A stretch of 36,900 bases of DNA, taken from positions 1 through 36,900 of the forward strand of contig JAGVVY010000018.1 of NCBI GenBank assembly GCA_018304585.1, read 5' to 3'. This document shows, piece by piece, positions 5,039-36,900 of this stretch (position 1 is the stretch's first letter; every line of letters starts with the position of its first letter). The DNA comes from Candidatus Aenigmatarchaeota archaeon. Lineage in GTDB: Archaea; Aenigmatarchaeota; Aenigmatarchaeia; GW2011-AR5. The position numbers and the translations under genes are program-made. The notes under the pieces are model-generated. The model did not search any database. It was not told the origin of the DNA and worked only from the letters and a program-made list of their open reading frames with translations.

Positions 5039-5137
5039 TGCTCCCGACGGGATTTGAACCCGTGTCCGAAGCTCGAAAGGCTTCTATCCTTACGGTTTCC
5101 GGCGCCTCCGGAAATGGCCGGGCTAGACGACGGGAGC
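5039..5137 (-). tRNA. tRNA-Glu (anticodon UUC) with an intron in the D-loop
   Basis: The acceptor GCTCCCG/CGGGAGC, anticodon arm GAAGC-CTTTCGA-GCTTC (anticodon TTC) and T-arm ACGGG-TTCAAAT-CCCGT are all intact, with discriminator A. The gene is 99 nt long; removing about 24 nt from the D-loop gives a normal 75-nt tRNA. The extra sequence lies after AGCCCGGCC and before AGGATA, near position 20/21. Its core is a perfect hairpin at 5096-5114 (arms TTTCCGG and CCGGAAA on the minus strand). Exact splice points are ambiguous because A residues flank both sides. The 3' CCA is not encoded. Confidence 0.88.
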
Positions 5138-5226: not shown

Positions 5227-5320
5227 TGGGCCGGACAGGATTTGAACCTGTGTCCTCCGCCGTGTAAAGGCGGCGTTTGCTAGTCCATGCAATGACTCAT
5301 AGCCGCTAGACTACCGGCCC
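5227..5320 (-). tRNA. tRNA-Val (anticodon UAC) with an intron at the end of the D-stem
   Basis: The acceptor GGGCCGG/CCGGCCC, anticodon arm CCGCC-TTTACAC-GGCGG (anticodon TAC) and T-arm ACAGG-TTCAAAT-CCTGT are complete. The gene is 94 nt; excising 21 nt (about 5276-5296) restores a standard 73-nt tRNA with D-stem GTC/GAC. The intron thus interrupts the 3' strand of the D-stem, near position 24/25. The gene begins 2 bp after tRNA-Ser ends, so the two must share a precursor transcript. The 3' CCA is not encoded. Confidence 0.88.
5276..5296 (-). other. tRNA-Val intron (approximate bounds)
   Basis: This 21-nt insert has no counterpart in standard tRNA-Val. Its removal joins TATGA to CGCCGCC and completes both the D-stem and the anticodon stem. 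The cut points could shift slightly. A bulge-helix-bulge fold was not computed. Confidence 0.7.
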
Positions 5321-5322
5321 GA

Positions 5323-5392
5323 CGCTGGGGGAGGGATTTGAACCCTCGCGTGCCCGAAAGCACACAGGTTTAGCAAACTTGCGTACCCCAGC
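5323..5392 (-). tRNA. tRNA-Ser (anticodon GCU) lacking the D-arm
   Basis: Acceptor strands GCTGGGG and CCCCAGC pair fully, with discriminator G as in Ser tRNAs. The anticodon arm is CAAGT-TTGCTAA-ACCTG (anticodon GCT, one A-C mismatch). A long variable arm (GTGC-loop-GCAC) and T-arm GAGGG-TTCAAAT-CCCTC follow. Between the acceptor (plus TA at positions 8-9) and the anticodon stem there are only two bases, CG. The whole D-arm, about 16-18 nt, is absent, giving 70 nt instead of about 86-88. The gene is first in the cluster, behind a well-placed TATA box. It could be a functional D-armless tRNA, a pseudogene, or a deletion artefact. Confidence 0.8.
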
Positions 5393-5417: not shown

Positions 5418-5425
5418 TTTTATAA
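5418..5425 (-). promoter_or_regulatory. TATA box for the Ser-Val-Glu tRNA cluster
   Basis: On the minus strand this reads TTATAAAA, 26-33 bp before the first base of tRNA-Ser. This predicts a transcript that starts at or a few bases before tRNA-Ser. The three tRNAs follow in the same direction, with 2 bp between Ser and Val and about 90 bp between Val and Glu. Confidence 0.65.
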
Positions 5426-5843
5426 TAGCAGGTTCGAGCTTTAGGAATAGCATTTATACCAACCATCTCGCTATTTGGTGTAACAGTGAATAGAGGCACT
5501 GTTGCATAAAGTATGACGAAATAATAGCGGTGCAGCTTTGTTGATCATTCATTTCAATTCTGTGAATTTGTTTCTTTTCAAAATTCCATGTTGCGTCTCA
5601 ACCAGACTGTCATTCCCGCATATGCAGCCATCACAGGTATGTAAGCCTTTCCCGTGTCCTACGCGTGCTTGCAAAGCACTTCTACGTCACCGTCATCCCC
5701 GATGATTTTCCGCATAGTCATTACTTGATATTAGTAAAGCAAATTTTATACGAGGAGAATGCCGCTGGAATAGTATATAGTGATTTAATGGTATTCTCCT
5801 GTATAACATAATCCGCTGCAATACAGCTGTCTGGCGGATTGTG
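5426..5843. other. non-coding stretch with several inverted repeats
   Basis: About 420 bases between the tRNA cluster and the toxin-antitoxin promoter hold no credible ORF. Visible structure includes a hairpin at 5482-5503 (AACAGTG / CACTGTT), an 8-bp pair AGGAGAAT 5753-5760 / ATTCTCCT 5793-5800, and a 7-bp pair AATCCGC 5810-5816 / GCGGATT 5834-5840. Being next to tRNA genes and before a toxin-antitoxin pair, it could be the scar of an integrated element. No attachment-site duplication or integrase is seen in the window. Confidence 0.4.
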
Positions 5844-10713: not shown

Positions 10714-11853
10714 CTAAATGCCTGTTTCTTTCCTAAGAATCTCGGCCTTGTCTGTTTTTTCCCACGGGAATTCCGGCCTTCCGAAGTGGCCGTAAGCCGC
10801 GGTTTTGAGATATATCGGGCTTTTCAGGCCAAATGCAGATATTATTTGCGCCGGCTTGAGCGGGAAATGCTTTCTCACAAGTTCCGAGATTTTTTCCTTG
10901 CTTATCTTTTCCGTGCCGAAGCAGTCAACGAACACGGAAACGGGCTCGGCAACGCCTATGGCATAGGCAAGCTGGACTTCGCACTTGTCTGCAAGGCCTG
11001 CCGCAACAACGTTCTTTGCCGCATACCTAGCGGCATACGCGGCAGACCTGTCAACCTTTGACGGATCCTTCCCCGAGAAGCAGCCTCCGCCGTGACGGCC
11101 CATCCCGCCGTACGTATCAACTATTATCTTCCTGCCCGTCAGGCCGGCGTCCGCGTAAGGCCCGCCGCGCACAAAGCTGCCCGTCGGATTTATGAATATC
11201 TTCGTTTCTGCGTCCATCCATTTTCCGCAGACCGGCTTTATGATTTTCTCAAGCACGTCTGCCTTTATCTGTTCGTACGGCACCCCCTCGTCATGCTGCG
11301 TGGAAACGACTATTGCGTCGGCCCTTTTTGGAACGCCGTCGACGTATTCTATCGTTACCTGCGACTTGCCGTCCGGCCTTAAGTATGATATCTCGTTTTT
11401 CTTTCTTGCTTCGGCGAGGCGCATGGTTAATTTATGCGCCAGCGTTATCGGCAAAGGCATCAATTCTTCCGTTTCCCTGCAGGCGTAGCCGAACATCATG
11501 CCCTGATCGCCTGCACCCTGTTCCTTCCGGTCAACGCCCTGCGCTATATTCGGGGACTGTTCGGTTATCTGCGTCCAGACCGAGCAGGTTTCCCATTCTA
11601 TCCCGTATTCCGACTTGGTATACCCGATTTTGCGTATTACTTCTCGTGCGATTCGAGGAACGTCTATGTAACCCCTTGTGGTCATTTCGCCGAAGACCGT
11701 TATGCCGCCGTTCTTTGCTCCCGTTTCTACGGCTACCCTGCTGTCAGGATCCTGCCTTAGCGCCTCGTCCAATATCGCGTCGGATATCTGGTCGCACAAC
11801 TTGTCCGGGTGCCCTTCGGTCACCGATTCGGAAGTAAAATAGTTCTTTTCCAT
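10714..11853 (-). CDS. metK: S-adenosylmethionine synthetase, bacterial type
   Basis: A 379-residue enzyme making S-adenosylmethionine from methionine and ATP. It has the bacterial and eukaryotic MetK motifs GHPDK (14-18), GAGDQG (113-118) and [10 protein letters not shown] (255-264). Most archaea use a quite different archaeal-type enzyme, so this looks like an ancient acquisition from bacteria, although the gene composition does not differ obviously from its neighbours. The length is normal and all motifs are present. It faces the HTH-CBS gene across a 54-bp shared promoter region, which suggests regulation by that protein. Confidence 0.97.
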
Positions 11854-36008: not shown

Positions 36009-36900
36009 CTATTTTCTCTTCATTTCCGCGAACCCGCAATACGGCTGCAAAACTGCCGGTATCGCTACCGACCCGTCCGCCTGCTGGAACTGCTCAAGAA
36101 TAGCGACCATCACGCGGCTTGTCGCTGCGGCTGTGTTGTTCAATGTATGCACGAAGCCTTTCACAGCCATGCCTTCTTTTTCCTTGTATCGTATTCCCAG
36201 CCTGCGGGCTTGGTAATCCGTGCAATTGGAATTCGAGCCGATTTCGCGGTAATTCCCGTCTGCCATAAGAAATTCAATATCATATTTCTTGGCAGCGATG
36301 CTCCCTATGTCTCCAGTGCATACATTCACAACGCGGAACTTTATGCCAAGGCTTCCCAAAAGCTCCTCCGAATTCTTCTGCAGTTCCTCGTGTAATTTCC
36401 ACGAGTCTTCAGGTCTTGAAAAAACGAACTGCTCTACCTTATTGAACTGGTGAACACGGAATATGCCCTTGGTATATTTCCCGTGCGCTCCTATCTCTTT
36501 ACGGAAACAGGGCGAGACGCCGACAAATTTCATCGGAAGGTCTTTCTCAAGCACTATTTCATCGCCCAGCATGGCGCCTATAGGATGCTCGGACGTTGCA
36601 ATCATGTACAGGTCTTCGTCTTCTATCTTGTACATCACGTTTTCAAAGTCTTCCAATGAAACGACACCTTCATAGGCCTTCTTTCTCATCATGAAAGGCG
36701 GCTCTATGAGTTTGAGCCCTCTTTTTCGAAGAAAATCAATCGTATAACGGACTATTGCCATGTCGAGTATGGCAAGCTCTTCCTTAAGATAAAAGAATCC
36801 TGTACCGGAAACCTTTGACGCCCGCTCCTCGTCTATCAGTCCCAGCGCAAGCGCGATTTCCAGATGGTTCTTGGGCTTGAACGTGAAACCAAGCGTGCCG
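36009..36900 (-). CDS. serS: seryl-tRNA synthetase, bacterial type (5' part off the edge)
   Basis: The visible 297 residues cover the catalytic core. Class II motif 2 is FRKEIGAHGKYTKGIFRVHQFNKVEQFVF; motif 3 is REIGSNSNCTDYQARRLGIRYK plus HTLNNTAAATSRVMVAILEQF. The segment SGTGFFYLKEELAILDMA upstream is also typical. The frame is open through 36900, so the N-terminal coiled coil lies beyond the window. This is the common bacterial/archaeal SerRS form, not the rare methanogen type. SerRS recognises the variable arm of tRNA-Ser, relevant to the D-armless tRNA-Ser at 5323-5392. Confidence 0.95.
   Translation of the reverse strand, partial: GTLGFTFKPKNHLEIALALGLIDEERASKVSGTGFFYLKEELAILDMAIVRYTIDFLRKRGLKLIEPPFMMRKKAYEGVVSLEDFENVMYKIEDEDLYMIATSEHPIGAMLGDEIVLEKDLPMKFVGVSPCFRKEIGAHGKYTKGIFRVHQFNKVEQFVFSRPEDSWKLHEELQKNSEELLGSLGIKFRVVNVCTGDIGSIAAKKYDIEFLMADGNYREIGSNSNCTDYQARRLGIRYKEKEGMAVKGFVHTLNNTAAATSRVMVAILEQFQQADGSVAIPAVLQPYCGFAEMKRK

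What the first reader, a model, noticed from the sequence alone, without database searches (positions are those of the whole stretch)
5323..5392. tRNA-Ser(GCU) gene with no D-arm in an archaeon
Acceptor, anticodon, variable and T arms are all intact, and the discriminator is G as expected, but only two bases stand where the 16-18 nt D-arm should be. D-armless tRNA-Ser(GCU) is a known oddity of animal mitochondria; I know of none in archaea. The gene is led by a good TATA box and heads a cluster, so it should be transcribed. It may be a functional minimal tRNA, a pseudogene with an intact copy elsewhere, or a piece that receives its D-arm by trans-splicing.
Basis: partly seen in the sequence, partly recalled or inferred. 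Interest (0 to 1): 0.85.

Follow-up and report, generated by a model that had tools for sequence, protein, structure and literature searches.

The report
Deletion-damaged tRNA-Ser(GCU) gene in an archaeon
The gene really lacks its D-arm as assembled, but close relatives show it is an ordinary intron-bearing serine tRNA gene from which one 39-base block (D-arm, part of the anticodon stem and most of an intron) is missing, so it is most likely a broken copy or an assembly fault and not a new kind of minimal tRNA.

Summary
In detail: the gene at 5392-5323 (minus strand) has the acceptor, variable and T arms of a tRNA-Ser(GCU) and no D-arm. One detail fails: the anticodon stem is not intact (CAAGT against ACCTG, an A29·C41 mismatch). 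A same-genus genome (G002) has the orthologue at the same place, with the same promoter and neighbours, a normal D-arm and a 21-nt bulge-helix-bulge (BHB) intron inside the anticodon stem. Aligned to it, the window gene lacks one 39-nt block: D-arm, G26, C27-A28-G29 and the first 16 nt of the intron. The 'CGCAA' that reads as linker plus stem equals the last five intron bases. Four relatives carry a BHB intron here and each splices to CAGGT, never CAAGT. No relative examined is D-armless (8 other orthologues read; 156 genomes of the class and GTDB r220 scanned by pattern). AGC is the commonest serine codon in the genes counted, so a working tRNA-Ser(GCU) is needed; none was found in the 82.5%-complete assembly. 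Best reading: a deletion-damaged allele or copy, or an assembly error, with the working gene not assembled. A functional D-armless tRNA, or trans-splicing, is possible but unlikely.

The parts
5323..5392 (-). tRNA-Ser(GCU) gene lacking the D-arm
   Evidence: RF00005, 35 bits, D-arm positions skipped; only Ser(GCU) found in the assembly
5386..5392 (-). acceptor stem 5' strand GCTGGGG, pairs 7/7 with 5324-5330
   Evidence: sequence, pairing count
5383..5384 (-). deletion junction: 39 nt present in G002 are absent between 5384 (A9) and 5383
   Evidence: alignment with G002, length difference 39
5379..5383 (-). CGCAA: remnant of the 3' end of a BHB intron that relatives carry in the anticodon stem; supplies the false 5' strand of the stem
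   Evidence: identical to the last five intron bases of G002; BHB motif in G002, G006, G007, G016
5377..5381 (-). apparent anticodon stem 5' strand CAAGT, A-C mismatch with ACCTG at 5365-5369
5370..5376 (-). anticodon loop TTGCTAA (anticodon GCT)
5348..5364 (-). long variable arm typical of tRNA-Ser
5331..5347 (-). T arm GAGGG TTCAAAT CCCTC
5418..5427 (-). TATA-like promoter box TATTATAAAA, conserved with G002; probably shared with tRNA-Val downstream
   Evidence: flank 91% identical to G002 over 100 nt
5227..5320 (-). tRNA-Val(UAC), two bases downstream of the Ser gene, with a probable intron next to the D-arm

Best explanation
This is a deletion derivative of an ordinary tRNA-Ser(GCU) gene with a BHB intron in its anticodon stem. 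One 39-nt block (relative to G002) is missing: the D-arm, G26, anticodon-stem bases 27-29 and the first 16 intron bases. What remains folds on paper into a D-armless cloverleaf only because the last intron bases (CGCAA) happen to resemble the lost CGCAG. The transcript would probably still be made from the promoter, because tRNA-Val two bases downstream needs it, but the Ser product most likely does not work. The cell's tRNA-Ser(GCU) then comes from an intact copy or allele that this assembly does not show. Shown: orthology, the missing block and its endpoints, the intron remnant, the mismatch, use of AGC codons, and no other copy in the assembly. Inferred: loss of function, and that an intact gene exists. 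Whether the deletion lies in the cells (pseudogene or strain variant) or arose in assembly cannot be decided here; I hold these about equally likely.
For: G002 of the same genus has the gene at the same place with D-arm and intron; the 5' flank is 91% identical over 100 nt and the first 24 nt after the junction are identical. BHB motifs (4-bp central helix, two 3-nt bulges) in G002, G006, G007 and G016 all splice to a CAGGT/ACCTG stem, and the window gene has no BHB. CGCAA equals the last five intron bases of G002; the A-C mismatch follows directly from that. All eight other orthologues read in the family keep the D-arm, one gene per genome. No other D-armless Ser(GCU) in 156 genomes of the class or in GTDB r220 contigs. 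AGC+AGT make 109 of 348 serine codons in 11 window genes.
Against: The rest of the gene shows no decay: acceptor and T arms pair perfectly and the variable arm is well formed; pair 7-66 is G-C where G002 has A-U. No intact copy was found in the assembled 82.5%. The surrounding assembly looks sound: the large window genes tested are open and carry their full Pfam domains. With G002 as proxy, the deletion ends share no microhomology that would explain it.
Confidence: 0.85

Rival explanations
1. A functional D-armless cytoplasmic tRNA-Ser(GCU), like animal mitochondrial tRNA-Ser(AGY): SerRS reads the variable and acceptor arms and the ribosome tolerates the missing D-arm.
For: Only Ser(GCU) gene found in the assembly; AGC heavily used; other arms undamaged.
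Against: The anticodon stem is also damaged (A-C mismatch from intron remnant); the sister species has a normal gene at the same place; no relative shares the state; the minimum-energy fold pairs GCA/TGC across the anticodon loop and gives the anticodon stem under 2% probability, though this folding program also fails on one normal relative.
Confidence: 0.08
2. A 3' piece of a split tRNA: a separate 5' half (acceptor, D-arm, CAG) is encoded elsewhere and trans-spliced at the retained 3' BHB half-site (CGC-AA|G).
For: The gene keeps the 3' side of the BHB motif next to the 3' exon; split tRNAs are known in archaea and their joints tend to sit at intron sites (PMC4033280); a splicing endonuclease gene is present.
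Against: The locus keeps the 5' acceptor strand GCTGGGGTA contiguous with the 3' part, which a 3' half does not need; no D-arm of this tRNA was found elsewhere in the assembly.
Confidence: 0.04
3. Assembly or strain-mixture artefact only: every cell carries an intact gene here and the 39-nt gap was made in assembly. This is one of the two branches of the best explanation, so its probability is contained in the 0.85.
For: A needed, apparently single-copy gene in a syntenic place; draft of 33 contigs at 82.5% completeness; sister genome normal.
Against: No read data; the contig otherwise looks sound; assemblers seldom drop 39 bp in unique sequence (own knowledge, not tested).
Confidence: 0.42

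Closest known systems
Intron-bearing archaeal tRNA-Ser(GCU) with non-canonical BHB introns (orthologues in G002, G006, G007, G016)
   Same: Same locus in G002, same arms, anticodon and flank, and the 3' end of the same intron
   Different: The window gene lacks 39 nt: D-arm, bases 26-29 and most of the intron
D-armless tRNA-Ser(AGY) of animal mitochondria
   Same: No D-arm, serine, AGC/AGU codons
   Different: Those are lineage-wide and functional; here one genome only, with a mismatch in the anticodon stem and a normal sister gene
Split and tri-split tRNAs (Nanoarchaeum equitans, Caldivirga maquilingensis)
   Same: A 3' BHB half-site is left beside the 3' exon
   Different: Acceptor 5' strand still contiguous; no partner piece found
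tRNA pseudogenes and deletion alleles
   Same: Internal deletion, promoter kept
   Different: No intact copy has been seen yet

Membership tests
Archaeal tRNA-Ser(GCU), orthologue of the G002 gene | GCT anticodon, long variable arm, G73, syntenic place upstream of tRNA-Val and tRNA-Glu | tested here: met
Archaeal tRNA-Ser(GCU), orthologue of the G002 gene | D-arm present and anticodon stem fully paired | tested here: not met
Functional D-armless tRNA (mitochondrial type) | D-arm replaced by a short linker | tested here: met
   only CG stands there, best read as intron remnant
Functional D-armless tRNA (mitochondrial type) | Anticodon arm intact | tested here: not met
   A29-C41 mismatch
Functional D-armless tRNA (mitochondrial type) | State shared across a lineage | tested here: not met
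Functional D-armless tRNA (mitochondrial type) | Mature RNA charged and used | not testable with these tools
   no RNA data
Trans-split tRNA | Separate 5' half carrying the D-arm elsewhere in the genome | tested here: inconclusive
   none found in the assembled 82.5%
Trans-split tRNA | BHB formed between the two pieces | tested here: inconclusive
   only the 3' half-site CGC-AA|G is present
tRNA pseudogene with intact copy | Intact isoacceptor elsewhere in the genome | tested here: inconclusive
   not found in the assembly; about 17.5% missing

The most novel reading that the evidence does not exclude
The deletion is real and fixed, and the cell reads AGC/AGU with a 70-nt tRNA-Ser that has no D-arm: a functional D-armless cytoplasmic tRNA outside mitochondria, freshly made by a deletion ending inside an intron.
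Probability: 0.07. Interest if true: 0.9.

Novelty: new member of a known kind. Interest (0 to 1): 0.2.

Why it matters
As a damaged gene or assembly fault it matters mainly as a warning: single draft genomes can show apparently new tRNA shapes, and in intron-rich archaeal lineages an intron remnant can imitate a stem. If the gene were shown to work it would be a major surprise, because D-armless tRNAs are described only for mitochondria in the papers found here.

Tried and rejected
Second tRNA-Ser(GCU) in the own genome: none by Rfam, by BLAST of the gene, or by pattern. D-arm piece elsewhere: the G002 gene as BLAST query and two D-arm patterns gave no tRNA-like hit; the three loose matches lie in unrelated sequence. 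D-armless Ser(GCU) elsewhere: 61 pattern matches in GTDB r220 contigs, none with a paired acceptor stem (best 5 of 7); many are normal bacterial tRNAs matched through their D-loop and others are chance. In the class, one other match, in unrelated sequence. The flank in viral contigs and the gene in plasmids gave nothing. Literature: D-armless tRNAs described only for mitochondria in the papers found. RNA folding was considered as evidence, but the program also misfolds the normal G015 tRNA, so it carries little weight.

Full report
What is there. On the minus strand, 5392-5323 reads GCTGGGG-TA-CG-CAAGT-TTGCTAA-ACCTG-TGTGCTTTCGGGCACGC-GAGGG-TTCAAAT-CCCTC-CCCCAGC-G. Rfam's tRNA model accepts it at 35 bits with the D-arm skipped. 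Acceptor 7/7, T stem 5/5, anticodon GCT, long variable arm, discriminator G. The anticodon stem has only four of five pairs: C27-G43, A28-U42, A29-C41 mismatch, G30-C40, U31-A39.

Setting. The window is the whole of contig C12 of an 825,503-base draft (33 contigs, 82.5% complete). The other tRNA genes found there look complete by eye once introns are allowed for, and many carry introns, some at non-canonical places. The Ser gene is followed after two bases by tRNA-Val(UAC), then by tRNA-Glu(UUC), both with introns near the D-arm. A splicing endonuclease gene is present. Because tRNA-Val sits two bases downstream, the TATA box upstream of the Ser gene would be kept for tRNA-Val alone; its conservation says little about the Ser gene.

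The comparison that decides most. In G002, a second species of the same genus, the syntenic gene is GCTGGGATA-GCCAAGTTTGGTCCACGGC-G-CAG[ATTGGTAACAACCAAGCGCAA]GT-TTGCTAA-ACCTG.... It has a normal D-arm. The bracketed 21 nt form an intron with a bulge-helix-bulge motif: central helix GCGC:GCGC, bulges AGA and AAG, inner stem of 5 bp. Cutting after the second base of each bulge joins CAG to GT, giving the perfect stem CAGGT/ACCTG. The same test finds the equivalent intron in G006 (bulges AGA, TCG), G007 (CAT, ACG) and G016 (CAA, ATG), each again yielding CAGGT. G015, without an intron here, has CAGGT directly; G001 has CAGGA with partner TCCTG.

Aligned to G002, the window gene lacks 39 nt between A9 and the last five bases of the intron, CGCAA, and the 24 nt from there on are identical. 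The apparent linker 'CG' and the first three bases of the apparent stem, 'CAA', are therefore best read as intron remnant, not as an evolved linker and stem. The alternative history (intron absent, D-arm deleted, plus a G29A change) needs more events and reaches the same damaged stem.

Is it one of a kind? In the family, the pattern search found nine genuine Ser(GCU) genes in 19 genomes, one per genome; the other eight have D-arms. A pattern for the D-armless form matched nothing else of tRNA character in 156 genomes of the class, and none of 61 matches in GTDB r220 contigs has a paired acceptor stem. These patterns fix T-loop and anticodon-loop bases, so a D-armless tRNA with other bases would be missed.

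Is it needed? In 11 window genes AGC is the commonest serine codon (100, plus 9 AGT, of 348 serine codons). So the organism must have a working tRNA-Ser(GCU). No second gene was found and no D-arm of this tRNA elsewhere, but about 17.5% of the genome is missing.

Mechanism, and how sure. Shown: orthology, the missing 39-nt block and its endpoints, the intron remnant, the mismatch, no BHB left. Inferred: the transcript does not give a working tRNA, and an intact gene or allele exists outside this assembly. I give this 0.85 in sum; within it, a real deletion with an intact copy or allele elsewhere and a pure assembly fault are about equal, because no reads can be examined here. A functional D-armless tRNA gets 0.07-0.08: the sister species is normal and the stem is damaged too. 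Trans-splicing gets 0.04: the retained 3' half-site (CGC-AA|G) is suggestive, but the acceptor 5' strand is still joined to the 3' part and no partner was found. RNA folding agrees with damage (anticodon-stem pairing under 2%, against 85-99% with G at position 29), but the same program misfolds a normal relative, so I give it little weight.

Known cases. D-armless tRNAs are described for animal mitochondria (PMC4033280, PMC7609411); split, tri-split and permuted tRNAs for archaea (PMC4033280). The window gene resembles the first on paper and keeps one feature of the second, but passes the membership test of neither.

Noticed in passing
5227-5320 (-): tRNA-Val(UAC) with a probable 21-nt intron (GTCATTGCATGGACTAGCAAA) between D-arm and anticodon stem; G002 and G001 have different introns a few bases away. 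ARAGORN miscalls it.
   Followed up: partly
5039-5137 (-): tRNA-Glu(UUC) with an intron in the D-arm region; in G001 the corresponding insert appears to be only about 12 nt. ARAGORN miscalls the gene as tRNA-Ser(aga).
   Followed up: partly
L055 (G003), tRNA-Ser(GCU): A probable intron of about 24 nt near positions 8/9, between acceptor stem and D-arm, an unusual place.
   Followed up: no
L065 (G002), tRNA-Ser(GCU): A second probable intron of about 34 nt in the variable loop, absent from the window gene.
   Followed up: no
36009-36899 (-): Class II tRNA synthetase core (PF00587), by its sequence a likely seryl-tRNA synthetase, cut off by the contig end; its N-terminal tRNA-binding arm is not in the window.
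   Followed up: partly
10714-11853 (-) and G000 contig ends C11:34414-34701, C32:14983-15225: Bacterial-looking S-adenosylmethionine synthetase, 73% identical to one in an Aenigmatarchaeota genome (CP070804.1); fragments of what may be a second, diverged copy sit at two contig ends.
   Followed up: no
L021, G000:C23:1911-1979: tRNA-Asn(GUU) with a probable intron in the D-loop, scoring just below Rfam's cut-off.
   Followed up: no
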